A DNA stretch of 64,000 nt from a virus. A program made the position numbers and the translations under genes. The notes beneath the pieces are model-generated. The model was given only the letters and a program-made list of their open reading frames with translations. It searched no databases and was not told where the DNA came from. Shown here piece after piece: positions 36,933 to 60,360 of the stretch; position 1 is the first letter of the stretch; each line of letters begins with the position of its first letter. The stretch lies in IMG/VR virus record IMGVR_UViG_3300028045_000008, positions 50,372 to 114,371 of that record, one strand, 5' to 3'.

Positions 36933-38501
36933 TTGACAAAACATTATGATTCTGGTTCGGCCATGGCCCAGAGAATCCTTGCTGGCGTTAACAAGCTAGC
37001 AGACAACGTAGCTTCCACGTTGGGCCCGCGAGGAAGGAATGTTATCCTGCAAGAGAAGAACAAAAGACCCATCATTACCAAAGACGGCGTTACTGTCGCC
37101 AACTTTGTGGATCTAGACGACCCCGTCGAGAACGCCGCCGCTCAAATAATTAAGCAGGCTGCAGAGCAAACTAACTCTGATGCTGGCGACGGTACCACTA
37201 CTGCGACAGTCCTCTCCAGGGCGATTTTGAGCGCGGCACAGAAGTATATTTCATCTGGAGTACCACCGATCGAACTCCAGCGTGGAATTGAGCGAGCCGT
37301 CACAGAACTGGCCGTCGTCCTCGACGCTGCCAGCCGCCCAATTATGTCAGAGGAGGACATCGCTCATGTGGCTTCGATTTCTGCCAACAACGACAAACAG
37401 ATTGGCCGACTTATAGCCCAGGCTGTATCTGCAGCGGGAAAGGATGGGGCAATAACTGTCGAAGAAGCTAGATCATTCCAGACCAGCCTGGATCTGGTTG
37501 AAGGGTTCAGGATGGATGCTGGCTACGCAGCAAGTGCTTTCATCACTGATGAGCGCCGCCGCGCCGTCTTATATGAAGATCCTATGATCCTGGTTACAGA
37601 CGAGAAGCTAGATAATGTCCACGATATTCTGCCAATTTTAGAACTCGCCGCGCGCGAGGCGCGCCCACTAATCTTTGTCGCCAGCGATGTCGAAGGTCAG
37701 GCCCTCGCCGCGATGATCGTCAATGCCTTAAAGGGTGTCCTTAAGGTCGCAGCAATCAAAGCGCCAAGGTACGGCGAAGAGCGCAAAAATATCTTAAAGG
37801 ATCTCGCTCTTTCGACGGGCGCAACTTTGATCACTCGTTCAAGTGGTAAGAGATTAAAAGACGTCAAACTCATAGATTTTGGAAGCGCCTCTAGGGTAGA
37901 CATCACAAGGGCCCAGACCACCATCGTCGGCGGCAATGGTAATCCAGATGCAGTATCAGCAAGAATTGATAGTCTAAGGGAAGAGTTAGTCAAGGAGGAT
38001 AACCTGCACGAGTGCGAAAAGCTTCAGGATAGGGTATCTCGGCTGGCGAGCGGTATCGCTATAATAAGAGTCGGCGCCTCTACAGAGATTGAGATGATAG
38101 AGAAGAAGCATCGGATCGAAGACGCACTAGAAGCAGTTCGCTCCGCCCAAATGGAGGGAATTGTCGAGGGTGGTGGAATCGCGCTCTTACGCGCCTCCTC
38201 TACTTTGGTGGTGGAAGTTGACAACGCAGATCAGTTGTTAGGGGTAGAAATAATTAAACAAGCCTCACAGGCTCCCCTGCGACAAATGGCGATTAATGCG
38301 GGTATTTCTCCGGATATTGTCTGCAAGCTTGTTCTGGAGTCCGAAACGGGCCACGGTTACGACTTTATGACCGATTCTATCGTGAATATGATGGACTCTG
38401 GTATTATCGATCCGGTGAGGGTGACCAAGACGGCGCTCCAGAATGCTGCTTCTGTGTCTGGCACGTTAATAACTACAAATTGTGCTGTGATTGAGAGTTA
38501 G
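36933..38501 (+). CDS. groEL: GroEL-like chaperonin
   Basis: This 522-residue chaperonin starts at TTG after [21 protein letters not shown] near 30-41, [10 protein letters not shown] near 85-94 (ATP site) and [10 protein letters not shown] near 412-421 are conserved. It lacks the C-terminal GGM repeat. It forms the folding chamber for phage proteins, probably with the GroES-like protein encoded at 18708. It has a strong own promoter, so it can be expressed strongly and separately from the co-chaperonin. A complete phage GroEL is uncommon. Confidence 0.93.
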
Positions 38502-40085: not shown

Positions 40086-40531
40086 CCCCTACCCGATGGC
40101 CAGATATTCGGCATCTTGAGTGGCATCTGATCGACGAATATGGCGTCTATGTCTCTTTTGATGATAATGGTACTGACGAATACTGGTTTGACCCAGATAA
40201 TTTTGAGGAAGATCCCGGCGTCATTTCAATCAATTCATCGAATGACGCCGAACACCAGCTACTCGTTTTGTTGCACGAAGCCGGCCATGTCATTCTTCGA
40301 TCAGATTCGGCGATGTTTGAGAGGAGGTTTCCAGGCTCTCACAGAGGTACTCTTCATGGCCGCATAGAGATATTGAGAGAGGAGGTATTGGCCTGGGAAG
40401 AAGCCCACCAGGTCGCCGATAGGCTTGGAATCAAGATAGAAGAGGAAAGATGGAAAGAGAATTATCGAGACGCACTAGAGAAATATGTGAGATGGACGCT
40501 GATTGGAGACGAGAATGAACAGACTAACTAA
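40082..40531 (+). CDS. Zinc metallopeptidase-like protein (HEAGH)
   Basis: This 149-residue protein has VLLHEAGHVIL near 62-72, the HExxH zinc site, and a later Glu-rich helix (REEVLAWEEA) that can give the third ligand, as in IrrE/ImmA-type small zincins. It overlaps the first lipoprotein gene by 17 bp. ImmA/IrrE proteins cleave repressors; cleavage of a host regulator is a hypothesis. Confidence 0.7.
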   Translation: MTPTRWPDIRHLEWHLIDEYGVYVSFDDNGTDEYWFDPDNFEEDPGVISINSSNDAEHQLLVLLHEAGHVILRSDSAMFERRFPGSHRGTLHGRIEILREEVLAWEEAHQVADRLGIKIEEERWKENYRDALEKYVRWTLIGDENEQTN

Positions 40532-48875: not shown

Positions 48876-49181
48876 ATGAATCATTTTTCGTTCAAACTCG
48901 GAGATATAATAAAGTGGGGCCCAACTTTCATGGTGGAAAACGAGCCCCCGGTAATTTCCTATGGCATGGTTATAAAAGATATGGAGACTGTGAGGGGAGG
49001 TAAATACTCCTACGGACCCCTTGTTGACTCCGATGGCGAGGTCAAGATGACGTTTATTGAGCCCATGTCAGCTATAACGGTCTTTTCATTCAAGGACCAA
49101 AAAGTGATAGTCTTGTACCAGAATCCAGATGACATCCCGCTGAACATAGAAAGAGTTTGTTTTAATAATAAAAATCCTTGA
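48876..49181 (+). CDS. Putative SH3-like small protein (KPGD-type)
   Basis: The product has 101 residues and begins NHFSFKLGDIIKWGPTF. The FKLGDIIK opening matches the family found in tandem from 50.7 kb, followed by a strand V-I-S-Y-G-M-V-I-K. It is the first recognisable member before that array. A second ATG at 48872 is in another frame. Fold is inferred. Confidence 0.5.
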   Translation: MNHFSFKLGDIIKWGPTFMVENEPPVISYGMVIKDMETVRGGKYSYGPLVDSDGEVKMTFIEPMSAITVFSFKDQKVIVLYQNPDDIPLNIERVCFNNKNP

Positions 49182-49791: not shown

Positions 49792-49985
49792 GTTATGACA
49801 CACTCGGTGAAGGCAATATGATGTGGACAGTCATCTTTAGAACACTATGTGGAAAGCCGGATAGCTGTATCACATCGGGCCCACACTCAAAGGTGAAATG
49901 CTGGAACCTCGCAAATCAAAAATATAATCAATTGCTCGCTATCATACCGGGGAATCACCAAGTTTATACTAAAAAGGACTCTTGA
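49788..49985 (+). CDS. Hypothetical protein (65 aa)
   Basis: A 65-residue protein with three cysteines (LCGKPDSC and KVKCW) that could bind a metal. Its last codons overlap the next promoter module, so it ends the previous unit. No family recognised. Confidence 0.5.
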   Translation: MSYDTLGEGNMMWTVIFRTLCGKPDSCITSGPHSKVKCWNLANQKYNQLLAIIPGNHQVYTKKDS

Positions 49986-50036
49986 CATTCTCTTGACAAT
50001 TAAACACTAGACAAGACTAGAAATATCGTGTATAAT
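49982..50036 (+). promoter_or_regulatory. Triple-hexamer promoter module, copy 1
   Basis: TTGACA at 49982 and 49993, TAGACA at 50008 and TATAAT at 50031. The spacings (11, 15, 23 bp between starts) are the same in all nine good copies. It drives the tRNA gene. Confidence 0.8.
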
Positions 50037-50049
50037 GTATATACATAAT

Positions 50050-50125
50050 ACGCTAGTAGCTCAGGGGTGAGAGCAGTCGTCTTATATGCGATTGGTCGGT
50101 GGTTCAAATCCACCCTAGCGTACCA
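50050..50125 (+). tRNA. tRNA-Ile (anticodon UAU), CCA encoded
   Basis: A full cloverleaf: acceptor ACGCTAG pairs with CTAGCGT, D stem GCTC/GAGC, anticodon stem GTCGT/GCGAT with two wobble pairs around loop CTTATAT (anticodon TAT at 50083-50085), T stem GGTGG/CCACC with loop TTCAAAT, discriminator A and an encoded CCA at 50123-50125. It would read AUA codons, which are common in these genes. The promoter TATAAT ends 13 bp upstream. Confidence 0.93.
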
Positions 50126-50152
50126 TTTAACCCAGAACCATAAAGGTAAATC

Positions 50153-50407
50153 ATGATTAAAACTTGTAAACACTGTGAAATAGAATTCAATGTCAACTCG
50201 CGCCAGAAGCGCCTCGTCGGAGGATACATCAATGAGTGTCCAGATTGCGTCGAGGAGCGAGGTGGTGATAACTCGGAGCCCAAACACTTCGGAGTGACCG
50301 GCTCACTCGGTGACGATGTTTCGGTAGTTCGCTTTGATAGTCAAAAGAAGCGAGATCAATTCCAGAAAGAGTATGGAGAAATTAAAACCCTCAAAGACTT
50401 TTTCTAG
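50153..50407 (+). CDS. Small zinc-ribbon protein
   Basis: This 84-residue protein has CKHC at 5-8 and CPDC near 29-32, a four-cysteine zinc ribbon, followed by a basic/acidic tail. Small zinc ribbons often contact RNA polymerase or nucleic acid. It is cotranscribed with tRNA-Ile. The role is inferred. Confidence 0.65.
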   Translation: MIKTCKHCEIEFNVNSRQKRLVGGYINECPDCVEERGGDNSEPKHFGVTGSLGDDVSVVRFDSQKKRDQFQKEYGEIKTLKDFF

Positions 50408-50409
50408 TC

Positions 50410-50464
50410 TTGACATTCTCTTGACAATTTAACCATTGACTTTAACTTAAATAACGTGTATAAT
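50410..50464 (+). promoter_or_regulatory. Triple-hexamer promoter module, copy 2
   Basis: TTGACA at 50410 and 50421, TTGACT at 50436 and TATAAT at 50459. Predicted transcription starts near 50470, directly at the tRNA-like RNA. Confidence 0.82.
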
Positions 50465-50470
50465 GTATGT

Positions 50471-50561
50471 ATAAATAGGGAGAGAGGCGCAGGTTCAAAT
50501 CCTGTCACGACCAAGGGACCAGTTGTGAAGTGTTGCTAGGTGGCACACTCGCCCTATTTAT
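50471..50561 (+). ncRNA. tRNA-like RNA with circularly permuted arm order
   Basis: Outer helix ATAAATAGGG/CCCTATTTAT (50471-50480 with 50552-50561). Inside, in order: a T-arm-like hairpin GCAGG-TTCAAAT-CCTGT, a hairpin CACGAC/GTTGTG (loop ending ACCA) and a D-arm-like hairpin GTGT/ACAC with GG in an 11-nt loop. Going round the junction this is T, acceptor, D, anticodon: the tRNA order opened at the anticodon side. It follows the T arm with no gap and has two bases before the D stem, as tRNAs do. No anticodon loop is seen. It could be a tRNA mimic, a split tRNA or a regulatory leader. Confidence 0.45.
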
Positions 50562-50587
50562 ATCACCAATCAATCCAGGAGCTTAAA

Positions 50588-50749
50588 ATGAACGACCCAA
50601 TACTAAATGACCTTATCCAAGTAGCTATTGAAGAATATTATAAGGAAGAACCTATTTATGGAGTAGATTATGATGAAATGCCAGAAGATTTAGAGGGCGA
50701 GTGCCCCGAGTGGATTAAGGAACAACTTGATGACGACATCCCATTTTAA
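50588..50749 (+). CDS. Small acidic protein (53 aa)
   Basis: ATG 50588 follows AGGAGC. The protein is very acidic (DEMPEDLEGECPEW, EQLDDDIPF). Acidic small phage proteins sometimes mimic DNA or bind host enzymes; no specific family is recognised. It overlaps the next gene by 20 bp. Confidence 0.55.
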   Translation: MNDPILNDLIQVAIEEYYKEEPIYGVDYDEMPEDLEGECPEWIKEQLDDDIPF

Positions 50750-50975
50750 ACAAGGAACACAAACAATACTGAAGCCTAGCAAAAGGGCATCACAGCGGAC
50801 CCGAAATCGTATTCACGAAAAGGGTCCGTCTTTTATTGTCGAGCTTGAAGCGACAATGCTAACCAACACAGCCTCCTCAATTGATGGGAAAATTTGTATT
50901 TGCTTCCGAGGCGTTGACAACGACTGGTCTGGGTGGCTCCCTGTCGACGAGATCCACGTAATAACTTCACTATGA
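50730..50975 (+). CDS. SH3-like array member 1 (81 aa)
   Basis: It opens HFKQGTQTILKPSKR and continues with strands around FIVELEA and ICICFRG, then closes with WSGWLPVDEIHVI. The opening FKQG plus a later hydrophobic strand places it with the tandem small-protein family. The N-terminal extension is basic. Function unknown. Confidence 0.5.
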   Translation: MTTSHFKQGTQTILKPSKRASQRTRNRIHEKGPSFIVELEATMLTNTASSIDGKICICFRGVDNDWSGWLPVDEIHVITSL

Positions 50976-50984
50976 GAAAGCAGC

Positions 50985-51206
50985 ATGAAAAGACAATACT
51001 TCCAGCCAGGGCAAATTGTTCAGCTAGACCGCCCAGAGTTGGGTGAGCGCGATACATGGAGATTTATTGTCCTATCTTCAACTCATCCACCTCGCCACCC
51101 TGGACGATATTCTCTTTATTGTATCCGAGCCCCATCTTATCGCAAAACAGACCTCAATACTGTCCAGTATATATCCGGTTGCAGCCTGCGAATAATGGAG
51201 GACTAA
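50985..51206 (+). CDS. SH3-like array member 2 (73 aa)
   Basis: The product begins KRQYFQPGQIVQLDRPELG, then WRFIVLSSTH. The order G-Q-I-V, about 15 residues, R-x-I-V-L-S resembles MazF/PemK-type SH3-like barrels, but the catalytic signature is not convincing. It is followed by a gene starting 4 bp later. Function unknown. Confidence 0.55.
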   Translation: MKRQYFQPGQIVQLDRPELGERDTWRFIVLSSTHPPRHPGRYSLYCIRAPSYRKTDLNTVQYISGCSLRIMED

Positions 51207-51209
51207 TAA

Positions 51210-51431
51210 ATGAAGTTTAAATCATCAGATTTCGATAGGGGCCAATTTTATAAGTTGAAAACTCAATCCTTTATTGTATTGGATAAGAAATCAATAAATG
51301 GGTGGTTCGACCGCATCTCTGTATATTTTGTCACTAACCGAAATAAACAGTTAAAAGGAAAGAAAAAAGATTTTACTACCGGCGGTTTTGAAATTTACTT
51401 AAACAAGCTCTCCCCCGGCGAACATAAATAA
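51210..51431 (+). CDS. SH3-like array member 3 (73 aa)
   Basis: The protein starts KFKSSDFDRGQFYKLKTQSFIVLD, a strand opening and then a basic region with KKKD. Like its neighbours it is small and beta-rich. The family motif is degenerate here (DRGQF in place of KPGDL). Ends before promoter module 3. Confidence 0.45.
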   Translation: MKFKSSDFDRGQFYKLKTQSFIVLDKKSINGWFDRISVYFVTNRNKQLKGKKKDFTTGGFEIYLNKLSPGEHK

Positions 51432-51437
51432 AACCTC

Positions 51438-51492
51438 TTGACATTCTCTTGACAATTTAGTTCTTTACTTTCTCTTGAAAAGCGTGTATAAT
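51438..51492 (+). promoter_or_regulatory. Triple-hexamer promoter module, copy 3
   Basis: TTGACA at 51438 and 51449, TTTACT at 51464 and TATAAT at 51487, same spacings as copy 1. Confidence 0.82.
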
Positions 51493-51518
51493 GTAGGTAT
51501 ACAAAAGAGAGTTGTGCC

Positions 51519-51791
51519 ATGCTAGATATCAATAGCTTAAAGTCAGGGCAAATGTTAAGATATTCCGTAAAATTGTATTCAACGCAGGAGCGCGTTGAAT
51601 CTTTGTGGATATTGTTGGAGGAAATGCCCGGCGCCGAATCGTGCTCGGCAAGATGGCAGGGCGCCCGAGCGTTTAAGATGTATCAAATATATGATAGCCA
51701 CAATGCACTGCGCCGCTTTCGGCAAAACCGACCGGTCGAATTCGTTTTTAATTTAAAGAGCATTCAGGATTTCGCATTGGAGGTGGTATGA
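51519..51791 (+). CDS. SH3-like array member 4 (90 aa)
   Basis: It begins NSLKSGQMLRYSV, then LWILLEEM, matching the opening strand and second strand of the family. The middle carries an extra segment with SARWQGARAF. It overlaps the next gene by 4 bp, as is typical in the array. Confidence 0.5.
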   Translation: MLDINSLKSGQMLRYSVKLYSTQERVESLWILLEEMPGAESCSARWQGARAFKMYQIYDSHNALRRFRQNRPVEFVFNLKSIQDFALEVV

Positions 51792-52000
51792 AAGACGAGC
51801 TTAAAGCAGGACAATTAAGAACAGTCGCTCGCGGCGGTCTTGAGGGCACAGTGGTTATTCTTTTGGATATACAGGACCACGCAAGGATGTTGACCCCTAA
51901 AAATCAGATTTGGGACTCGATTATCGTCTTTTCGCCCATCCCATACTGGGAGCCTGGCGAGAAAATTGGTCTGCGTGGCGTAGACTTAATGAATTGGTGA
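51788..52000 (+). CDS. SH3-like array member 5 (70 aa)
   Basis: The product starts KDELKAGQLRTVARGG, then VVILLDIQD, and ends LMNW. It keeps the L-K-x-G opening. It overlaps the previous gene by 4 bp. Function unknown. Confidence 0.5.
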   Translation: MKDELKAGQLRTVARGGLEGTVVILLDIQDHARMLTPKNQIWDSIIVFSPIPYWEPGEKIGLRGVDLMNW

Positions 52001-52025
52001 GCTAAGAATAGAAAGTTAATTCTTC

Positions 52026-52080
52026 TTGACATTCTCTTGACAATTTAGCCATTGACTTCAACTAAAAAAACGTGTATAAT
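52026..52080 (+). promoter_or_regulatory. Triple-hexamer promoter module, copy 4
   Basis: TTGACA at 52026 and 52037, TTGACT at 52052 and TATAAT at 52075. Confidence 0.83.
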
Positions 52081-52106
52081 ATAGATATAAAAACAGGAGC
52101 TATCAC

Positions 52107-52706
52107 ATGTCCGAACAAGCCAAAAGACTCGACGCCTTCTTGCTCGAAAACCAAATCTCTAAGAGTGAGCGCTCCTTTGGTGAATCTCTCAAACAGAGTA
52201 TTTCCAAGTGGGGAAAATTAACAGATAACCAGTGGAACGCCTTCCAGCGGATGGAAGCGCGCCACAGTCCGGAAGTAAAAGCAGCGCGGGAGGGGTGGCA
52301 TAAGAGTTGGGATGAAGAAAAAGCTAGAAAATTACGAATTGCTGTTGAATATTATTCCTATACTGAATATTATTCGAGAACGGTAAATGCTGTTCTTGCC
52401 GATTCCTCATTTGTACCTTCCGAAAAGGATTATCGAAAGATAGTCGAAAATAAATATGCCCAGAAAGTCATAGAAATTCTGGCAGAAGACCCACTTTATC
52501 CGGTTGGCAGTCTTGTTCAAGTCCGCAAAACTGCTCGCAAGCACGCCTATTCTTTGCGTGATAGGTGTGCCCTGGTTGTGGTGAATGATGGCCCAGTCAG
52601 ATCCGCCGCAAAAGGTTCTCGGACTTATACGATTCTGCCTTTCGGTGAATCTAACACCGTAACCGTCGAGGAGCGATGGCTCAAGAAGGCCAGGAAGGCG
52701 AAATGA
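52107..52706 (+). CDS. Helical N-domain plus SH3-like C-domain protein (199 aa)
   Basis: Residues 1-125 are helical and charged (KSERSFGESLKQS, YEYTEYYSR type). Residues 130-199 begin YPVGSLVQVRKTARK and have CALVVVND, the same small beta-domain order as the array proteins. It appears to be a two-domain fusion, which may show how the family domain is tethered to another function. It overlaps the next gene by 4 bp. Confidence 0.5.
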   Translation: MSEQAKRLDAFLLENQISKSERSFGESLKQSISKWGKLTDNQWNAFQRMEARHSPEVKAAREGWHKSWDEEKARKLRIAVEYYSYTEYYSRTVNAVLADSSFVPSEKDYRKIVENKYAQKVIEILAEDPLYPVGSLVQVRKTARKHAYSLRDRCALVVVNDGPVRSAAKGSRTYTILPFGESNTVTVEERWLKKARKAK

Positions 52707-52957
52707 CCGCCGACATCACGCCAAAACTAGGCGATATACTCGAAGAGAACTGCTCAAGAACTGACTTCAAAGCAAGATATATTGTTTTATCTATCATATC
52801 AGGCGACAGTGAGTCAAGGCACGGAAATTCATATGAACTATACACCCTATATGTCGAATCTTCATCTGCAGCAGACCGGTCGTTACAAGGGACGATTGAC
52901 GTTGCATATAATCTGGAAATAAACAACCATCGCGACACATGGCGTATTATCTCTTGA
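52703..52957 (+). CDS. SH3-like array member 6 (84 aa)
   Basis: Starts TADITPKLGDILEENC, followed by RYIVLSIISGD, and ends DTWRIIS. These are the family opening, the second strand and the closing Trp strand. Its final bases overlap promoter module 5. Confidence 0.55.
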   Translation: MTADITPKLGDILEENCSRTDFKARYIVLSIISGDSESRHGNSYELYTLYVESSSAADRSLQGTIDVAYNLEINNHRDTWRIIS

Positions 52958-53008
52958 CATTCTCTTGACAACTTTTCTCTTTACTTTCTTTTAAAAAGCG
53001 TGTATAAT
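52954..53008 (+). promoter_or_regulatory. Triple-hexamer promoter module, copy 5
   Basis: TTGACA at 52954 and 52965, TTTACT at 52980 and TATAAT at 53003. Its transcribed leader shares GTAAGTTAGAGAA with copy 6. Confidence 0.83.
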
Positions 53009-53056
53009 GTATATGTAAGTTAGAGAAACAACCACAAACTTTTAGAGGCTATCACA

Positions 53057-53851
53057 ATGGCATACTCAAGAAATAAACACAAAAGAACCGTCCGCTGCTC
53101 ATACTGCCATAAATCGGGACACAATAAATCCTCTTGTTCTAGTAAGAGAGAAAGAATTGAGGAACTACGCGCCGTACATGGAGATGATTTTTACACTGTG
53201 CGCATGTACGACTTAAAAGAGGAGCGCCGAAAGGAAGGCGGGTCGTCAAGAACATGCTCCTATTGTTCCCAGGGTGGACACAACCGCGCGACCTGCACAG
53301 CCCTGAAGGGCCACATGGCTGAAACCAAAGTTAAAAACTCCGAATTCAGGAAGGCTGTTTATGAGCGTCTGTGCGCCAATGGCATTGGCATCGGAGCATT
53401 AGTTTCAAGTGACAATTTCCAGTGCAACGTCATCGCAGGCGATTATTCGTCAGGGGTCTATCGCGTTCCGCAAATCATAACAGATATAAACTGGCTCGGG
53501 ATAAATGTCTGGCATAAGGAACTATGGTATTTCGACTCGACTACCAATATCGATGGCGGTCAGCCTGCACCCATCTTTACGATTCCATTTGGGAAGATGG
53601 ACGATATTCGATGGAAGAACCCAATGGGATATCCATTTGACTCCAAACTTGTGCCGTTGTTCATAGGCGAGAAATATTTCAACGAATTGTGTGAGGGCAC
53701 TCACTGGCGCGCCGATAAAATTGGAGGTCATTTCATGACTGTTGAATCGCCAGTACCACCAACCGCCCCACCTGCTGGCTGGCTTGAGTCCGAGGACAAC
53801 AAAATTAAAGAGGTTTACAAGAACCGTAAGGACTGGCAAGGGGCTTTATAA
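53057..53851 (+). CDS. Double CCHC zinc-knuckle protein
   Basis: This 264-residue protein has two retroviral-type zinc knuckles: CSYCHKSGHNKSSC at 14-27 and CSYCSQGGHNRATC at 67-80, each C-x2-C-x4-H-x4-C. The remaining 180 residues are beta-rich with many aromatic residues. Zinc knuckles bind RNA or ssDNA; they are rare in phages. It is placed just before the MoxR-vWA pair and has the same promoter type and leader, so the three may act together. Confidence 0.75.
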   Translation: MAYSRNKHKRTVRCSYCHKSGHNKSSCSSKRERIEELRAVHGDDFYTVRMYDLKEERRKEGGSSRTCSYCSQGGHNRATCTALKGHMAETKVKNSEFRKAVYERLCANGIGIGALVSSDNFQCNVIAGDYSSGVYRVPQIITDINWLGINVWHKELWYFDSTTNIDGGQPAPIFTIPFGKMDDIRWKNPMGYPFDSKLVPLFIGEKYFNELCEGTHWRADKIGGHFMTVESPVPPTAPPAGWLESEDNKIKEVYKNRKDWQGAL

Positions 53852-53865
53852 GCCCTTTATCGCCC

Positions 53866-53920
53866 TTGACATTCTCTTTACAATTAAAGTATTGATTTAT
53901 GTCTAAAAAACGTGTATAAT
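53866..53920 (+). promoter_or_regulatory. Triple-hexamer promoter module, copy 6
   Basis: TTGACA at 53866, TTTACA at 53877, TTGATT at 53892 and TATAAT at 53915. Confidence 0.8.
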
Positions 53921-53967
53921 GTATATGTAAGTTAGAGAAGCAACCAACACAACCCAGGAGACTTAAT

Positions 53968-55122
53968 ATGTCCATCGCTATCACATTCGCAAACCTCAAT
54001 TCAATGATTCCAACCCTTCTTTCAGGCGACGAAAACGACCTTTATTCGGTTCTTATTCGTGGTCGCCATGGCATCGGCAAATCTTGGATTGCCTATCAAA
54101 CCGCCCAGGGATTATCCTGGGACAAGGGCGCTAATAAGACGCGCCCAATTCAAGACGGTGAAGTTTCGCTTCCTGTAGTTGAGATTCGAGCCTCCCAGAT
54201 GACAGAGGGCGACCTTCTTGGATTACCATCTCCTCATGAAGTCAACATCAATGGCGAAAAGGCAGCTTCGCTGCGCCCTTTCACTTGGCTCGTAAAGGCT
54301 TGCACCGAGCCCGTCGTCCTCTTTCTCGATGAAGTTGACCGCGCGACAACCGAGGTTCGACAAGGCTTTTTCCAGCTTGGCGACAGTCGTCAAATCAACG
54401 GGTGGAAACTCCATCCAGGCACCGTCGTCTTCGGCGCTGTAAACGGCGGCGTTCATGCTGCACAATACCAAGTCGCCGACATGGACCCTGCAGAACTTGA
54501 CCGCTGGGTAACTTTCGACGTCGAACCATCGGTCGAAGATTGGCTTAACTGGGGCAAAACCGAGGTTCACTCCATCATCTGGGACTTCATTAATCAGAAC
54601 AAGGACCATCTGGAGCACAAGGGCGAATTTGAGCCAGGAACCGTTTATCCTTCTCGCCGCTCTTGGCACCGCTTGAGCAATACGCTTGCAAAGGTGAATA
54701 TGCTTGACAACGAAAAAGCAGATTTAGGGCTTCTCTTTAATCTATCCCACGGATTTGTAGGCTTCGAAGCAGCCGTGTCACTTCGCGACTTCGTGGAGAA
54801 TTACGAGCGTCAGGTTACTGTCGAGGATATCCTGGTCCATGGTAATGTGGATAAAACCTCTGGATTCGGTTTGGTCGACCACGTTGCCCTCATCGAAAAA
54901 ATGAATGCTGCTGAAGTATTCACTTCTTCGATTGAAGGCGATAAGATTGTGAATCTGGTAACCTATTTTGACGTGCTCCCATCCGAAGCACGCATGAAGT
55001 TGTTCACAACCCTGACCGCGGCCAACAGCCAGGTTTCCGCCGAGAATGGCGCTAATTTTCATCGCGAGCTAGCCAAGCAAGGCAAGGTCGAGGCGTTTAT
55101 TAAGCTTCTTGGTGGAAAATAA
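53968..55122 (+). CDS. MoxR-like AAA+ ATPase
   Basis: This 384-residue protein has Walker A GRHGIGKS at 32-39, Walker B VVLFLDEVDRA near 113-123, sensor-like FGAVNGG, and the MoxR-style GDLLGLP loop. MoxR proteins remodel or load partners for vWA proteins. Its gene is followed by a vWA/metallopeptidase gene, as in known MoxR-vWA pairs. It probably acts as the motor on that partner or on its client. Confidence 0.88.
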   Translation: MSIAITFANLNSMIPTLLSGDENDLYSVLIRGRHGIGKSWIAYQTAQGLSWDKGANKTRPIQDGEVSLPVVEIRASQMTEGDLLGLPSPHEVNINGEKAASLRPFTWLVKACTEPVVLFLDEVDRATTEVRQGFFQLGDSRQINGWKLHPGTVVFGAVNGGVHAAQYQVADMDPAELDRWVTFDVEPSVEDWLNWGKTEVHSIIWDFINQNKDHLEHKGEFEPGTVYPSRRSWHRLSNTLAKVNMLDNEKADLGLLFNLSHGFVGFEAAVSLRDFVENYERQVTVEDILVHGNVDKTSGFGLVDHVALIEKMNAAEVFTSSIEGDKIVNLVTYFDVLPSEARMKLFTTLTAANSQVSAENGANFHRELAKQGKVEAFIKLLGGK

Positions 55123-55143
55123 GAGTGTGATAGCAAAGGTCGA

Positions 55144-55188
55144 AGCGCTAGCATCGGTTGGTTGTCCGATGCTAGCGCTCCCTTTCTC
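55144..55188 (+). terminator. Strong hairpin terminator after MoxR
   Basis: AGCGCTAGCATCGG pairs perfectly with CCGATGCTAGCGCT (14 bp, loop of 8), followed by CCCTTTCTCTT. It separates the MoxR gene from promoter copy 7 for the vWA gene. The U tract is mixed, so termination may be partial. Confidence 0.75.
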
Positions 55189-55243
55189 TTGACATTCTCT
55201 TGACATTTTAATCCTTTACTTATTCCCAAAAATCTGGTATAAT
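55189..55243 (+). promoter_or_regulatory. Triple-hexamer promoter module, copy 7
   Basis: TTGACA at 55189 and 55200, TTTACT at 55215 and TATAAT at 55238. Confidence 0.82.
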
Positions 55244-55268
55244 TCATATATAGAATGGAGTTTACCCT

Positions 55269-56633
55269 ATGACATCGACACCCTTTAATCTTGACGAACA
55301 TATTGTTGACCTGCTCCGAGATGAGCCTTTCTTCGCCGCTTTGTCGCGCCGTATGGAGAAAGTGGCCTCCAGGTCAGTTCCTACCGCTGGTGTAGCCTTC
55401 AACAAGGACCGATGCCGCTTTGAACTTTATTACAATCCCGAATTCATGGCAGATATGCTAGCCCAGGATAAGAAATATGTTAAAGGCATTCTGTTGCACG
55501 AATTTTATCACATCATGCTCCTGCACGTAACCTCGCGCATGCCAGACGGAGCCATGACTAAGAAATGGAATATCGCCACAGATTTAGCTATAAATTCCGA
55601 GCTAACCGTCTTTTCGCACGATTCTGACTCCCCCACTGGATACTCTGTGGAAAGCTCCATTCTGCCACTTGATAAGGCGTGTATCCCTACGGTCGGTCCC
55701 TTCGCAGAGTTCGCCCCGCATTTATCTGCCGAGCAATACCTATCCATCCTGCCGGATAGTCCAGAACCAGATGATAGTCAGTCTGGCCAAGGAGGCGGAC
55801 AGGAAGGCGGACAGGAAGACGGCCAAGGCGACGGACAGGAAGACGGCCAAGGCCAAGGCCAAGGCGACGGACAGGAAGACGGCCAAGGCCAAGGCCAAGG
55901 CGACGGACAGGAAGACGGCCAAGGCCAAGGCCAAGGCGACGGTAACGGCTTCGATGACCATACTGACTGGGGCTCATCGGATGGCGCAGACGAGGGAAGA
56001 AAAATTGCAGAAGAGCGCCTAAAGGAAGCAATCAAAGAGGCGTATGTCGAGGCCCAATCGCGGGGTTTTGGTTCCATCTCTTCTGGAATGAAGCGGACGA
56101 TTAAGGAGGTTATAACTCCTAAAGTCAACTGGCGTTCAATCCTACGCTCTTTCGTCAAGGCTTCGCAGAGAGCAGATAGAACCTCAACTATCAAACGCCT
56201 GAATCGCCGATACGCATACATCCACCCTGGTCGCAAGGCAAAGCGTCAAGCTAAAATCGCGGTTTCGATTGACCAATCGGGCAGTGTTTCCGATGGCATG
56301 CTCGTTGCATTTTACTCCGAACTTGAAAAGCTGGCAACCATCGCTGACTTCACGATTGTTCCCTTTGATACTGAGGTTGCAGAAGAACATATTCATGTTT
56401 GGAAGAAGGGTGAGCGACACGAGAAGACTCGATATAAGCATGGTGGAACCTGCTTTAACGCCCCAACCAAGTGGGTAAACGAGAACAAGTTTGATGGTCA
56501 CATTGTCCTGACTGATATGGAGGCTCCGAAGCCTATTCCCAGCAATTGCCAGCGTATGTGGATGACAACCAAGGCCCACGCAGAACGCCCTTACTTCCAG
56601 ACCAATGAACGAGTGATTGCAATCAATGACTAA
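55269..56633 (+). CDS. vWA domain plus HExxH metallopeptidase-like protein
   Basis: The 454-residue product has HEFYH at 77-81 in an N-terminal metallopeptidase-like domain, a Gln/Gly/Asp repeat linker at about 172-226, and a vWA-like C-terminal domain with MIDAS DQSGS at 335-339. This combination matches the DUF2201-type family that pairs with MoxR ATPases. Starts at ATG after GGAG. Client unknown. Overlaps the next gene by 8 bp. Confidence 0.82.
   Translation: MTSTPFNLDEHIVDLLRDEPFFAALSRRMEKVASRSVPTAGVAFNKDRCRFELYYNPEFMADMLAQDKKYVKGILLHEFYHIMLLHVTSRMPDGAMTKKWNIATDLAINSELTVFSHDSDSPTGYSVESSILPLDKACIPTVGPFAEFAPHLSAEQYLSILPDSPEPDDSQSGQGGGQEGGQEDGQGDGQEDGQGQGQGDGQEDGQGQGQGDGQEDGQGQGQGDGNGFDDHTDWGSSDGADEGRKIAEERLKEAIKEAYVEAQSRGFGSISSGMKRTIKEVITPKVNWRSILRSFVKASQRADRTSTIKRLNRRYAYIHPGRKAKRQAKIAVSIDQSGSVSDGMLVAFYSELEKLATIADFTIVPFDTEVAEEHIHVWKKGERHEKTRYKHGGTCFNAPTKWVNENKFDGHIVLTDMEAPKPIPSNCQRMWMTTKAHAERPYFQTNERVIAIND
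55786..55944 (+). repeat. Gln/Gly/Asp-coding tandem repeats (36-bp units)
   Basis: Units containing GACGGACAGGAAGACGGCCA, with GGCCAAGGCCAAGGC between them, repeat three times at high identity, flanked by shorter variants. They encode GDGQEDGQGQGQ, a flexible linker between the two domains of the vWA protein. Confidence 0.85.
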
Positions 56634-56859
56634 CTCTCACCTCAAAATCGATGATGTCGAAGATTTAAAAGCTGGGGATATAATCTGTATCCCCAGCCTT
56701 CATCGTGGCGAGTGGTCGAGACTTGTTATATACGAGGTCACGAAAAGACTGTTTAAAACTTATGTATTACTTGATGAAACTCGTGCGTGGAAGCCAGGAG
56801 ATTTATATAGTTTTCAGATAATCGACCTGGACCCTACGAAATGGAGGTTGGTTGCTTGA
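56626..56859 (+). CDS. SH3-like array member 7 (77 aa)
   Basis: Starts TNSHLKIDDVEDLKAGDIICI, with LVIYEVT as second strand and KWRLVA at the end. The KAGDIICI and closing Trp strand fit the family. It overlaps the vWA gene by 8 bp. Function unknown. Confidence 0.55.
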   Translation: MTNSHLKIDDVEDLKAGDIICIPSLHRGEWSRLVIYEVTKRLFKTYVLLDETRAWKPGDLYSFQIIDLDPTKWRLVA

Positions 56860-56910
56860 CATTCTCTTGACAAACTTTTCCTTTACTTTTCCTCCAAAAT
56901 TTGGTATAAT
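56856..56910 (+). promoter_or_regulatory. Triple-hexamer promoter module, copy 8
   Basis: TTGACA at 56856 and 56867, TTTACT at 56882 and TATAAT at 56905. It drives the densest stretch of the array (56934 onward). Confidence 0.82.
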
Positions 56911-56933
56911 ATGTATATAGGATGGAGGTTAAC

Positions 56934-57185
56934 ATGAAGTTTAAGCCGGGAAATTTATTAAAGCATAAGAAAAACGGCGGGCTCTGGATTGTTATTGAAA
57001 CTCGCCAGATAAATAAAAAAGGTCCACGCAGGCGCCCGACTGTTTTCAGGATGCAATTGGATGCTGTTTGTATCCAGCCTGGACTAAGTAAGTGCAATCA
57101 TGCAGGGCTAGCCGATACCTGGTACTGTAAAGAAGAAGATGGAAGCGACCACGATGATAATTGGACGGTGATAAATGAAGTTTGA
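56934..57185 (+). CDS. SH3-like array member 8 (83 aa)
   Basis: ATG 56934 follows GGAGG. Opening KFKPGNLLKHKKNGGLWIV is a clear family motif with the second strand VIETR; it ends DNWTVINEV. An in-frame ATG at 56922 is less likely because it precedes the ribosome site. It overlaps the next gene by 11 bp. Confidence 0.65.
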   Translation: MKFKPGNLLKHKKNGGLWIVIETRQINKKGPRRRPTVFRMQLDAVCIQPGLSKCNHAGLADTWYCKEEDGSDHDDNWTVINEV

Positions 57186-57408
57186 ACCAGGAGATTTAAT
57201 CGAAGAAGTCGTCGACGGTCAAGCCGATGCCCGATGCATTGTGGTAAAGCTTGAGAATCATCCGGTGGTTCCTGGGTTATCAGATTATACCCTTTATCTA
57301 GTGTGGGCGGCACCCCAGGCCTGGGGACATCCACCATGGAAAACCTTGATTTTAACGAATGCCGTGGTTGAGTCTTCTGATGACGATTATTACTGGAGGA
57401 AAGCATGA
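57175..57408 (+). CDS. SH3-like array member 9 (77 aa)
   Basis: Starts KFEPGDLIEEVVDGQ, a consensus opening, with IVVKLENH as next strand and a closing YYWRKA. Basic/acidic linker between. Overlaps both neighbours. Confidence 0.65.
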   Translation: MKFEPGDLIEEVVDGQADARCIVVKLENHPVVPGLSDYTLYLVWAAPQAWGHPPWKTLILTNAVVESSDDDYYWRKA

Positions 57409-57638
57409 AATTTAAAGTCGGAGATTTAATAGCTCATAAGCCGATGCAGGGTTTAGGTTCGCTCGTTGAAGCGATTATCCTGGAGCACTGGCAAACTGAG
57501 AATTACTGGACAAAAGATGTCGTTGATAATGTACATTTATTCATAACTTTCGACGAGGATGACCCGACAGCAGTTAGCGATATTGACACAATGACCAGCT
57601 TCAAAGACCAGCATTGGAGCTTGAAAAGTGAGGTTTAA
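57405..57638 (+). CDS. SH3-like array member 10 (77 aa)
   Basis: Starts KFKVGDLIAHKPMQG. A segment VHLFITFDEDDP matches VDLFITFDASWP of the next gene, showing they are close paralogs. It ends HWSLKSEV. Overlaps the next gene by 11 bp. Confidence 0.68.
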   Translation: MKFKVGDLIAHKPMQGLGSLVEAIILEHWQTENYWTKDVVDNVHLFITFDEDDPTAVSDIDTMTSFKDQHWSLKSEV

Positions 57639-57858
57639 ATCCGGAGATATTGTCGCTTACGGCATGAATAATAAGCCAGAGATACAGGGCGTTATCGTCA
57701 ATCTCAGTAAAGAGCCAAACCCGTGGAAAGCGGGAACCATTGCTAATGTGGATCTATTCATCACTTTCGACGCCTCGTGGCCTTCTAAACTACACAAAAT
57801 TGAGACGTTTTGCAACTTTAACCCCGATGTCTGGGAGTTGAAAAATGAAAAAGGGTGA
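57628..57858 (+). CDS. SH3-like array member 11 (76 aa)
   Basis: GTG start. Opening RFKSGDIVAYGMNNK, second strand GVIVNLS, VDLFITFD in common with the previous gene, and closing VWELKNEKG. A clear duplicate of member 10. Overlaps the next gene by 14 bp. Confidence 0.68.
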   Translation: MRFKSGDIVAYGMNNKPEIQGVIVNLSKEPNPWKAGTIANVDLFITFDASWPSKLHKIETFCNFNPDVWELKNEKG

Positions 57859-58078
57859 TTTGATTCAGTTTGTATCTGCACATGAAAAACATCGATGCAG
57901 GGGGATTATTTTGGAGAACGTTCCAGAAGATGATAATCAATTACCTCGAATCCGCATCGCTGTATATATGTATTATGTCCCAGCATGGAATAATCTTAAA
58001 TCAGGGGAAATCTGGGATATCAAGTTGAGCAAATTGAATAAGCTTTACCGGGTTTTAAATAAAGCTAAGACTAACTAA
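57845..58078 (+). CDS. SH3-like array member 12 (77 aa)
   Basis: Opening KKGDLIQFVSAHEKH, second strand RGIILENV, and closing LYRVLNK. It is slightly shorter at the N-terminus than its neighbours. Function unknown. Confidence 0.63.
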   Translation: MKKGDLIQFVSAHEKHRCRGIILENVPEDDNQLPRIRIAVYMYYVPAWNNLKSGEIWDIKLSKLNKLYRVLNKAKTN

Positions 58079-58081
58079 GGT

Positions 58082-58339
58082 GTGAAGAAATACCACCCAG
58101 GCCAAATTGTACGATATGAAAGAACGGGAGCTATATATTTGCTAATGGAGGAGATAGAAATATCAATGCTTTCGCCTCATTTTTTCAAAGGGACAGGCCA
58201 GGGATTTAGGGCCCTCATCCTTTATGCTGGTCGCAGTTGGTCAAAGGGTGGCACCGAGATAGAGATTTTTATATTGCGAAAGTCGGCATATTACGAGGTT
58301 TTATCGGACGTCCCCAGCGCCGCCGCCGACCCCAGATAG
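58082..58339 (+). CDS. SH3-like array member 13 (85 aa)
   Basis: GTG start. Opening KKYHPGQIVRYERTG, second strand IYLLMEE and closing YYEVLSDV. A Gly/Phe-rich loop (FFKGTGQGFRA) is inserted. It is followed by a T-rich hairpin at 58347. Confidence 0.6.
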   Translation: MKKYHPGQIVRYERTGAIYLLMEEIEISMLSPHFFKGTGQGFRALILYAGRSWSKGGTEIEIFILRKSAYYEVLSDVPSAAADPR

Positions 58340-58346
58340 TTGGTGA

Positions 58347-58387
58347 TTAGCGCGCCTAGCGCGATTTTTTTTCGCTAAATTTTTTTT
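58347..58387 (+). terminator. Nested hairpin with two T tracts
   Basis: Outer stem TTAGCG (58347-58352) with CGCTAA (58373-58378), an inner GC-rich hairpin, then a T8 run inside and another T run (58380-58387) after it. It lies between array members 13 and 14 and could stop or attenuate transcription. Confidence 0.55.
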
Positions 58388-58402
58388 CAATAGGATTACA
58401 TT

Positions 58403-58660
58403 ATGAAGTTTAAACCAGGCAATATCTTGGAACACTGCCCCACTAAGACAAGATGGATTGTATTATCCGCAGAGAATATCGAGAAAAGAACAGGAATAAA
58501 CAGCGCTTACAAGCTAGAGGTAGAAGCATTTTGTGTTTATGTAGGGGAGCATGATAGGGCAAACAGATATTGGGATGTTAATCAGCGTGACATCTTTGTT
58601 TTGACGCAGCAAGATTTAAACCCGAGTGATATAGTGTGGGAGGTCAAGAATGAAATTTAA
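58403..58660 (+). CDS. SH3-like array member 14 (85 aa)
   Basis: Opening KFKPGNILEHCPTKTRWIVL is a close match to member 8. Continues with YKLEVEAFCVYVG and closes VWEVKNEI. Overlaps the next gene by 11 bp. Confidence 0.66.
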   Translation: MKFKPGNILEHCPTKTRWIVLSAENIEKRTGINSAYKLEVEAFCVYVGEHDRANRYWDVNQRDIFVLTQQDLNPSDIVWEVKNEI

Positions 58661-58841
58661 ACCAGGACAATTAGTTAGGAAGAAGGCCAGAAAAGGAGAT
58701 CCCGACGCAATTTATTATGTGCTTGATGCGAGTTATCCCAAAATGCTGATTCATTGTGTGGAATCACTCTTCGATTTTATGCAGGGGAAAAGCTATGAAG
58801 TCGGGGTAGGTGAATGTGAGTTAATAACGGATTACCGATGA
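58650..58841 (+). CDS. SH3-like array member 15 (63 aa)
   Basis: Opening KFKPGQLVRKKARKGD, second strand IYYVLDA. Short and basic. It overlaps the next gene by 4 bp. Function unknown. Confidence 0.65.
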   Translation: MKFKPGQLVRKKARKGDPDAIYYVLDASYPKMLIHCVESLFDFMQGKSYEVGVGECELITDYR

Positions 58842-59074
58842 GGTTGAAGTCAGTCAGAATTAAAGCAGGCGATATCGTAACGCTAGATTATGCGCGTGAA
58901 AGTCCGAAAGGAGAGGCACCACTATTCATAGCGCTAGAAAATCCGACGTCGATACATTATTCAATGAATGTCTATTGCTTCTATAGCCCAGGGGGTATAC
59001 AGCATACCGCTTGGCTTCATGCAACTTTCGACATATCCCAAAGCAGGTTAATAAAGTTCAATTATACAGGATGA
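58838..59074 (+). CDS. SH3-like array member 16 (78 aa)
   Basis: Opening VRIKAGDIVTLDYARES, then LFIALEN and FDISQSRLIKF at the end. The usual KPG becomes KAG. Overlaps the previous gene. Confidence 0.6.
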   Translation: MRLKSVRIKAGDIVTLDYARESPKGEAPLFIALENPTSIHYSMNVYCFYSPGGIQHTAWLHATFDISQSRLIKFNYTG

Positions 59075-59089
59075 ACCCCTACTTAGGAT

Positions 59090-59359
59090 GTGAGAGAATT
59101 CTTACCAGGTGATTTAGTAGTAGAAACCATGGATAACCGAGTGTTGGCCTATTACATAATATTAACCAGGCATTATTTAGATGGAAACAGGGACAGCTTA
59201 ATCTTGGGATATTATTCACTAATCGTTTATAGTACGGGTCACGCGTTGCCAACTCACTCGCCAGGTTCGAATTGGTTCATCAAGCATTCTGATTTACAAA
59301 AGTCAAATTTTCGCTTGTTAGTTGGCGCCAGGATAGAAGACCTAGAAACCATGGAATAA
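59090..59359 (+). CDS. SH3-like array member 17 (89 aa)
   Basis: GTG start after AGGA. Opening REFLPGDLVVETMDN, second strand YYIILTRHY, a Tyr-rich middle and closing SNFRLLVGA. The PGDLV and I-x-x-R-H segments are shared with the next members. Confidence 0.63.
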   Translation: MREFLPGDLVVETMDNRVLAYYIILTRHYLDGNRDSLILGYYSLIVYSTGHALPTHSPGSNWFIKHSDLQKSNFRLLVGARIEDLETME

Positions 59360-59361
59360 GC

Positions 59362-59715
59362 ATGAAAACTAAGAAAGAGTGTTCAAACGTGAGAGCTTTG
59401 AGAGAATCCATCTGCCCAGGTGATATCCTAGTTGAAAAGTCATTTGTCAAAGAATCCGGTGATAGAGATGTAGTAAGCATATTCCTAGTATTAAACAGGC
59501 ATATGGAGAGGGATGGCTTGGGCCTTGATAGTTTCACGAGGACAATTTATTATAAAACATTCCTATTATACGTTGAACCTAATGATTGGGCAGATGTCGA
59601 CTTTAGAGTTAACTCCACATATTATCTATCAGAGCATGAAATCACAGATCACCACATGTGGGAAAAACTGTTTGAATCTGACTTGTCATGGAAAGATAGT
59701 TATCCGAGGACATAA
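59362..59715 (+). CDS. SH3-like array member 18 (117 aa)
   Basis: Opening ICPGDILVEKSFVKE near 20-34 follows a basic N-terminus; then FLVLNRHM. The end KLFESDLSWKDSY matches the tails of members 19 and 20, indicating a recent triplication. Starts 2 bp after the previous stop. Confidence 0.63.
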   Translation: MKTKKECSNVRALRESICPGDILVEKSFVKESGDRDVVSIFLVLNRHMERDGLGLDSFTRTIYYKTFLLYVEPNDWADVDFRVNSTYYLSEHEITDHHMWEKLFESDLSWKDSYPRT

Positions 59716-59723
59716 AAGATAAT

Positions 59724-60026
59724 ATGTTAGAGTTATTTCCAGGTGATTTAATAAGTGAGAAAGAGAACAATCAAGAGATCGCTCGCTATCTAGTAATAAG
59801 CAGAGTTATCCAGAATCAAAATGCACAGTATTGTACCTTCGATTATGTAGAGTATAACTGCATTATCACGTACTTCAATGGAAAGGTATATCATCGCCCC
59901 GAAAAGGTAGGAACATGGTGGATAATCGACACAATCAATTTGAACAGCAACAGGGAGGATTGGGAAGTGGTGGTAAGAAGCGGACTATCATGGAGTGACG
60001 AGTATGAAAAAGAAAATAGAGCTTAA
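59724..60026 (+). CDS. SH3-like array member 19 (100 aa)
   Basis: Opening LELFPGDLISEKENN, second strand YLVISRVI, closing DWEVVVRSGLSWSDEY. The tail is nearly the same as in member 20. Overlaps the next gene by 23 bp. Confidence 0.65.
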   Translation: MLELFPGDLISEKENNQEIARYLVISRVIQNQNAQYCTFDYVEYNCIITYFNGKVYHRPEKVGTWWIIDTINLNSNREDWEVVVRSGLSWSDEYEKENRA

Positions 60027-60360
60027 ACCTGACAAATCAGACCGCTTCTTGGAGCCAGCCCCTGGAGATATCATAAGGGAATACTACTATACCGAGACAT
60101 GGCCTAAAAAAGAGATTGAAATAGGACAATGGTTAGTATTAGGAAGAAGACATGTAATAAATGAAGAATTATTTCAATCAATAGGAAGAGCGAGATTATA
60201 CTACTGCCTCGTTATAAAGGTTAATACTGACATATCGTGGGTTAACTCAAGAGTAGGACAAACCAGAGGAATCATCTCTCAAAAGTTTAATTCTAATAAA
60301 TGGGAAGTAGTGGTAGAAAGTGGGTTATCGTGGGAAGAAGATAAGTATGACATTGAGTAG
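60004..60360 (+). CDS. SH3-like array member 20 (118 aa)
   Basis: ATG 60004 lies within the previous gene. Opening EPAPGDIIREYYYTE near 17-31, QWLVLGRRH as second strand and closing KWEVVVESGLSWEED. It is the last member before a gene-free stretch. Confidence 0.62.
   Translation: MKKKIELKPDKSDRFLEPAPGDIIREYYYTETWPKKEIEIGQWLVLGRRHVINEELFQSIGRARLYYCLVIKVNTDISWVNSRVGQTRGIISQKFNSNKWEVVVESGLSWEEDKYDIE

What the first reader, a model, noticed from the sequence alone, without database searches (positions are those of the whole stretch)
50730..60360. Tandem array of about twenty small paralogs with an F-x-P-G-D opening
Seen: about 20 adjacent small genes (63-118 aa) share an opening such as KFKPGDLI, a hydrophobic second strand with W/Y-x-V-L, and often a closing Trp strand (DNWTV, VWELK, DWEVV). 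Neighbours overlap by 4-23 bp, and some pairs (57405/57628; 59362-60004) are close duplicates. Such expansions in phages often arise from an arms race. A diverged SH3-like barrel, perhaps related to MazF/PemK or KOW-like folds, is inferred.
Basis: partly seen in the sequence, partly recalled or inferred. Interest (0 to 1): 0.87.

Follow-up and report, generated by a model that had tools for sequence, protein, structure and literature searches.

The report
Tandem phage SH3-like barrel gene array
A large uncultured virus of bacteria carries about twenty neighbouring copies of one small barrel-shaped protein gene, all strongly diverged, and relatives of this array with up to about 35 copies turn out to be common in related uncultured phages, so this looks like an exchangeable toolkit of small binding proteins whose targets are unknown.

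Summary
Seventeen window genes belong to one family by iterated HMM. With each member's whole BLAST cluster left out, 16 of 17 score E<=0.025 and one 0.18; the best reverse-strand false match is 0.51. Two more genes (48876, 51788) and the C-terminal domain of 52107 join by profile-profile comparison. AlphaFold gives an SH3-like (KOW/EF-P-like) beta barrel, pLDDT 91. No conserved polar catalytic residue is seen, so MazF/PemK is not supported.

The array is not isolated. Five close relatives carry it with gene gain and loss. Seventy-five more loci from uncultured phages hold 1125 related '+' strand small genes and none on the reverse strand, up to 36 per 20 kb, around a MoxR AAA+ / vWA-metallopeptidase pair. 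There, neighbours typically overlap by 14 nt, and one conserved ~32-nt junction encodes the tail of one protein, the ribosome-binding site, and the head of the next.

dN/dS is below 1 but higher than in flanking genes. Synonymous divergence shows recent block exchange. The "close duplicates" are only 34-37% identical. An arms race is plausible, not shown. Best reading: a modular repertoire of small, probably early, target-binding barrels for host takeover or counter-defence. Function is untested.

The parts
48876..49181 (+). Outlying relative (101 aa, FKLGDIIKW opening)
   Evidence: hhalign of its ortholog set against the family 93.3%, controls <=1.6%; HMM E 0.027
50985..51206 (+). SH3-like family member (FQPGQIV)
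   Evidence: leave-out HMM E 3.8e-8
51519..51791 (+). SH3-like family member (LKSGQML)
   Evidence: leave-out HMM E 4.6e-4; dS 0.026 to L015 against 1.2-1.3 in MoxR/vWA genes
51788..52000 (+). Probable member (LKAGQLR)
   Evidence: hhalign 95.5%
52107..52706 (+). 199 aa protein with a C-terminal domain of the family
   Evidence: hhalign of residues ~136-203 to A4 85.8%
52676..52957 (+). SH3-like family member (KLGDILEE)
   Evidence: leave-out E 4.5e-5
53057..53851 (+). Zinc-knuckle protein inside the array
   Evidence: Pfam zf-C2H2_10 E 1e-7, two stretches; conserved next to MoxR in relatives
53968..55122 (+). MoxR-type AAA+ ATPase
   Evidence: Pfam AAA_5 above cut-off, phrog_1297 E 3e-42
55269..56633 (+). 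vWA + putative metallopeptidase protein, MoxR partner
   Evidence: Pfam DUF2201_N E 1e-24 and DUF2201 E 3e-13
56617..56859 (+). SH3-like family member (LKAGDII)
   Evidence: leave-out E 5.1e-4
56922..57185 (+). SH3-like family member (FKPGNLL); likely true start 56934 after GGAGG
   Evidence: leave-out E 0.018; sequence at start
57175..57408 (+). SH3-like family member (FEPGDLI), 11-nt overlap with previous gene
   Evidence: leave-out E 7e-6; overlap
57405..57638 (+). SH3-like family member (FKVGDLI), ATGA overlap, GGAGG in previous gene tail
   Evidence: leave-out E 1.6e-4
57628..57858 (+). SH3-like family member (FKSGDIV), 11-nt overlap
   Evidence: leave-out E 0.025
57845..58078 (+). SH3-like family member (MKKGDLI), 14-nt overlap; the window gene closest to the wider family
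   Evidence: leave-out E 6e-9; second profile E 1.2e-5
58082..58339 (+). SH3-like family member (YHPGQIV)
   Evidence: leave-out E 0.18, weakest; iterated E 5e-13
58403..58660 (+). SH3-like family member; AlphaFold target
   Evidence: model pLDDT 90.7, pTM 0.78; leave-out E 6.8e-4
58650..58841 (+). SH3-like family member (FKPGQLV, 63 aa), 11-nt overlap
   Evidence: leave-out E 0.0094
58838..59074 (+). SH3-like family member (IKAGDIV), ATGA overlap
   Evidence: leave-out E 3e-4; hhalign 96.2%
59090..59359 (+). SH3-like family member (FLPGDLV)
   Evidence: leave-out E 8e-5
59362..59715 (+). SH3-like family member (ICPGDIL, 117 aa)
   Evidence: leave-out E 3e-4; dN/dS 0.61 to L012, highest in that set
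59724..60026 (+). SH3-like family member (LFPGDLI)
   Evidence: leave-out E 8e-6
59995..60360 (+). SH3-like family member (PAPGDII), 37% identical to 59724
   Evidence: leave-out E 3.4e-7; pair identity
50410..50464 (+). Promoter repeat (TTGACATTCTCTTGACA ... TTGACT-17-TATAAT)
   Evidence: exact 17-mer; 13 matches in window against 0.23 expected; -35/-10
51438..51492 (+). Promoter repeat
   Evidence: an L015 exchange tract begins at 51437
52026..52080 (+). Promoter repeat
52954..53008 (+). Promoter repeat
53866..53920 (+). Promoter repeat before MoxR
55189..55243 (+). Promoter repeat before vWA gene, preceded by a 14-bp hairpin (55144-55179)
56856..56910 (+). Promoter repeat before the main run 56922-60360

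Best explanation
The region is a tandem set of about nineteen strongly diverged paralogs, plus one fused domain, of a single SH3-like beta-barrel family. It belongs to a much larger class of such arrays beside a MoxR/vWA pair in related uncultured phages. Shown by computation: homology, fold type, purifying selection on the genes tested, gene gain and loss, block exchange between close relatives, and (in the wider family) a conserved ~32-nt junction in which one gene's tail carries the ribosome-binding site and start of the next. Inferred: the genes are expressed early and together from repeated sigma-70-type promoters and translated in a coupled way; each barrel binds a different partner, most likely a host protein or nucleic-acid complex; and the set acts as an exchangeable repertoire for host takeover or counter-defence.
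For: Leave-cluster-out homology. Barrel model at pLDDT 90.7 and a five-stranded barrel for a wider-family member at 87.0, with KOW, PWWP, Tudor and CAP-Gly neighbours. Conservation limited to glycine, hydrophobic positions and an aromatic, as expected of binding scaffolds with different surfaces. No sequence match among 50,697 phage records for three members and a consensus. 1125 '+' and 0 '-' strand relatives in 75 loci. Junction: 14-nt overlap at 323 of 526 junctions; information confined to -12..+19; SD-like word at 69% against 2% mid-gene; tail Glu codon GAG in 292/313 overlapping cases against 111/174 without and 44% inside genes. Exchange: dS 0.03-0.10 at 51519 and 56617-57405 to L015 while MoxR/vWA dS is 1.2-1.3. 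Purifying selection relaxed relative to flanks. Strong promoter-like repeats at operon starts.
Against: No partner, phenotype or expression data. dN/dS never exceeds 1, so direct diversifying selection is not shown. The promoter class and 'early' timing are inferred from consensus only. Neighbours in the wider arrays are no more alike than random pairs, and across distant phages only 1 of 952 matched pairs is >=85% identical, so fast recent expansion and long-range exchange are not seen there. The host is unknown. No defence-model (padloc) search was run on the array genes.
Confidence: 0.5

Rival explanations
1. The barrels are adaptors or clients of the neighbouring MoxR/vWA-metallopeptidase machine: each one brings a different substrate to the ATPase, much as HspQ does for Lon.
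For: All 17 long records found by the junction DNA pattern alone also carry MoxR with array genes usually within ~15 kb, including a 267-kb phage whose MoxR is only 40% identical. HspQ (5ycq) is among the Foldseek hits. The array brackets the MoxR/vWA genes in the window and relatives.
Against: MoxR/vWA pairs of phiKT1024, N4 and AR9 have no array beside them. A 189.7-kb record has 13 array genes and no MoxR match, though its array runs to the contig ends. Linkage within a clade can be plain synteny.
Confidence: 0.2
2. The barrels mainly bind nucleic acid or the transcription/translation machinery, like MotB or KOW proteins, and act as a set of nucleoid-, RNA polymerase- or ribosome-associated factors.
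For: Fold neighbours are EF-P domain I, Spt5 KOW, PWWP. T4 MotB, with a predicted KOW domain, is an early DNA-binding protein that alters H-NS repression (PMC7827196).
Against: Isoelectric points vary widely, 4.5-9.7 in the window, so a common DNA-binding surface is unlikely; no conserved basic residue stands out apart from a lysine in the opening motif.
Confidence: 0.2
3. The array grows because its junctions and promoters recombine easily, and the individual genes matter little (near-neutral accumulation).
For: Repeated promoters and, in the wider family, junctions with shared runs of up to 35 nt; strong gene turnover.
Against: Every ortholog pair tested has dN/dS below 1, most below 0.35; reading frames are kept through arrays of more than 30 genes.
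Confidence: 0.07
4. MazF/PemK-like RNases or toxin-antitoxin pieces.
For: SH3-like barrel fold type only.
Against: No MazF/PemK match in Pfam or in the structure hits listed; no conserved catalytic-type polar residue.
Confidence: 0.03

Closest known systems
KOW/Tudor/PWWP-type SH3-like barrels (EF-P domain I, Spt5 KOW, HspQ, CAP-Gly)
   Same: Predicted barrel topology; Foldseek prob up to 1.00, target TM up to 0.80 to Spt5 KOW5
   Different: No Foldseek E below 1e-3; no curated Pfam cut-off seen to be reached; single-domain phage proteins in long tandem arrays
T4 MotB
   Same: Small phage protein with a predicted KOW domain, early gene (PMC7827196)
   Different: MotB has KOW plus OB-fold domains; array members are single barrels in many copies
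Phage MoxR-vWA(metallopeptidase) pair of jumbo phages
   Same: The window pair 53968/55269 has the same two components as described in PMC7824862
   Different: That paper proposes virion assembly and, in the passages read, mentions no array of small barrels
Lineage-specific expansion of a zinc ribbon in Bacillus phage G (~35 copies)
   Same: Large expansion of one small domain in a large phage (PMC7824862)
   Different: Different fold; tandem coupling not described in the passage read
PeSL promoter-stem-loop cassettes of T4-like phages
   Same: Repeated promoters linked to shuffled gene blocks (concept cited in PMC4503421)
   Different: Only one of the eight promoter repeats here has a clear hairpin beside it
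S-PM2 'ORFanage'
   Same: Run of small orphan genes in a marine phage (PMC4503421)
   Different: Its proteins do not match either family profile
MoxR-vWA ternary conflict systems (VMAP)
   Same: MoxR and vWA components beside variable proteins (PMC7159879)
   Different: No VMAP or effector fusions in Pfam results; phage-borne

Membership tests
SH3-like (KOW-type) barrel superfamily | Five-stranded barrel in SH3 order | tested here: met
   AlphaFold models, pLDDT 90.7 and 87.0; Foldseek top hits are SH3-like barrels, though none at E<1e-3
Pfam KOW (PF00467) or EFP_N | Clear match to the curated model | tested here: not met
   Best EFP_N E 0.0043, KOW E 0.018, one member each
MazF/PemK toxins | Family match and conserved catalytic residues | tested here: not met
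   No match; conserved columns are glycine, hydrophobic and aromatic
T4 MotB | N-terminal KOW plus C-terminal OB-fold | tested here: not met
   63-121 aa, one barrel domain in the model; no second domain seen
PeSL cassettes | Early promoter overlapping a stem-loop terminator at cassette borders | tested here: not met
   Promoter at all eight sites, clear hairpin at one
Phage MoxR-vWA pair | MoxR AAA+ next to vWA fused to a metallopeptidase domain | tested here: met
   Pfam AAA_5, DUF2201_N, DUF2201 above cut-offs
VMAP ternary system | MoxR, vWA with effector, and VMAP | tested here: not met
   No VMAP or effector domain in the neighbours scanned
Anti-defence or host-takeover genes | Early expression and inhibition of a host target | not testable with these tools
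   Only promoter consensus and location available
Known anti-phage defence families | Match to PADLOC models | not tested
   padloc library not searched

The most novel reading that the evidence does not exclude
An undescribed class of phage gene array: dozens of tandem, very diverged SH3-like barrels joined by a ~32-nt dual-coding junction (tail of one protein, ribosome-binding site, head of the next). The junction keeps any order of genes translatable, so the phage can gather and reorder a repertoire of target-binding proteins beside a MoxR/vWA machine.
Probability: 0.35. Interest if true: 0.82.

Novelty: new variant of a known kind. Interest (0 to 1): 0.63.

Why it matters
Large uncultured phages are full of small orphan genes. 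Here one fold appears to account for about twenty in the window and more than a thousand in related loci, which turns orphans into one testable family. The junction suggests how a phage can keep long runs of small genes translated and reorderable, and the arrays offer a ready panel of natural binders for finding host targets.

Tried and rejected
Pfam and PHROGs on members: no confident family, best PHROG hits unknown function. tblastn of three members and a consensus against 50,697 phage records: none. S-PM2 ORFanage as the same thing: rejected. Recent tandem duplication as the general source: not supported in the wider arrays. Recent long-range exchange between distant phages: 1 of 952 pairs. 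Host: one relative lies in a contig binned to a Bacteroidetes MAG, too weak to use.
Full report
The finding. The window is the last 64,000 bases of a 114,371-base virus record.

One family. A profile built from fifteen window genes and iterated over 1096 ORFs of this genome and five relatives gathered 87 genes, none on the reverse strand. Because iteration favours its own members, I left out each gene's whole BLAST cluster and rebuilt the profile: the 17 window genes scored between 6e-9 and 0.025, except 58082 at 0.18, and the best reverse-strand ORF over all runs scored 0.51. Profile-profile comparison added 51788, 48876 and the C-terminal part of 52107, with seven unrelated neighbours at 1.6% or less. 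50727 and 51210 remain unassigned. Identity between members is low, median 18%.

Fold. With a 76-sequence alignment, member 58403 is predicted as an all-beta barrel at pLDDT 90.7. A member of the wider family gives a five-stranded barrel at 87.0. Foldseek finds EF-P domain I, CAP-Gly, HspQ, PWWP, Tudor and Spt5-KOW domains, all SH3-like, none at E below 1e-3; against viral models it finds uncharacterised phage proteins, several named DUF1653. Conserved positions are a glycine, hydrophobic residues and a late aromatic. Pfam and PHROGs give no confident family.

The arrays elsewhere. Searching IMG/VR with the neighbouring MoxR protein found five close relatives (83-89% identical MoxR) and then 75 further loci. 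In those 75 loci, a second profile gathers 1125 small genes, all on the '+' strand, up to 36 in 20 kb. The iterated profile may have drawn in some unrelated small genes, since the reverse-strand control only guards against chance; 807 have E<1e-6. The two profiles match at 90.7%. In 12 long records of this set (185-205 kb) the listed matches lie close together. A search with junction DNA alone found 85 stretches, and all 17 long records tested among them carry MoxR. A looser start-motif search gave 13 further records that were tested, of which 8 carry MoxR. In three cultured phages with MoxR/vWA there is no array.

The junction. In the wider family 323 of 526 junctions overlap by exactly 14 nt. 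Over 338 non-redundant junctions, information is confined to about -12 to +19 around the start, reading roughly TGGAGGTNATCA(A/G)TGAAAGTCGGTGATTTGGT. The same bases encode the tail ...EVI(S/N)(E/A)SR of one protein, a Shine-Dalgarno-like word, and the head MKVGDLV of the next. That the DNA and not only the protein is selected is suggested by the glutamate codon: GAG in 93% where the next gene overlaps, 64% where it does not, 44% inside genes. The window genes show a looser form, with overlaps of 4, 11 or 14 nt at some neighbours. In the window family the closing aromatic is kept in non-overlapping genes too, so it is probably structural.

Evolution. Against relative L012, array genes have dN/dS 0.09-0.61 (median 0.19), four flanking genes 0.02-0.11; none exceeds 1. 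Against L015, synonymous divergence is 1.2-1.3 in MoxR and vWA but 0.03-0.10 in 51519 and 56617-57405, which means recent exchange of blocks; one tract starts at a promoter repeat. That repeat, TTGACATTCTCTTGACA followed by a sigma-70-type promoter, stands at operon starts from 49.98 to 56.9 kb: seven exact copies and one with a single mismatch; the window holds 13 matches with up to three mismatches where 0.23 are expected.

Mechanism. I read the array as a repertoire of small binding barrels, made in coordinated, coupled fashion, probably early, with different partners for different members. Host takeover or counter-defence is the most likely use, since these genes turn over quickly, are under relaxed but real constraint, and sit behind strong host-like promoters; this last step is inference. 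The main rivals are adaptors of the MoxR/vWA machine and a nucleic-acid-binding set like MotB.

Literature. Searches of the held library found no description of such arrays. Related precedents are the MoxR-vWA pair of jumbo phages and the zinc-ribbon expansion of phage G (PMC7824862), MotB (PMC7827196), and PeSL shuffling as cited in PMC4503421. The library holds only open-licence papers, so absence there is weak evidence.

Noticed in passing
49982-56910: Two TTGACA words 11 nt apart stand about 26 nt upstream of each -35 in the promoter repeat; on the other strand this reads TGTCAAGAGAATGTCAA, somewhat like a PHO box. The motif is also frequent in many distant loci.
   Followed up: partly
55144-55179: A 14-bp hairpin between the MoxR and vWA genes, the only clear terminator-like stem beside a promoter repeat.
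   Followed up: no
55780-55960: Low-complexity repeat of the GQEDGQGQGD kind inside the vWA protein gene, variable between relatives.
   Followed up: no
36933-38501: Phage-encoded GroEL-type chaperonin (phrog_5725 E 1.5e-137).
   Followed up: no
22809-26246: DnaE-type DNA polymerase III alpha, about 27-31% identical to the nearest listed phage records.
   Followed up: no
40503-43169: 888 aa protein with HYDIN/ASH/DUF1573 Ig-like repeats.
   Followed up: no
50050-50125: tRNA-Ile with anticodon TAT, the only tRNA in the window.
   Followed up: no
L049:6525-6941: Two family domains fused in one reading frame.
   Followed up: no
L181:1-3657: A contig binned in Bacteroidetes MAG UBA12012 carries MoxR, vWA and five array genes; possible host hint or mis-binning.
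   Followed up: no
L123 and L242 records (267 and 293 kb): Two larger phages with only 39-40% identical MoxR also carry 22 and 30 family genes.
   Followed up: no
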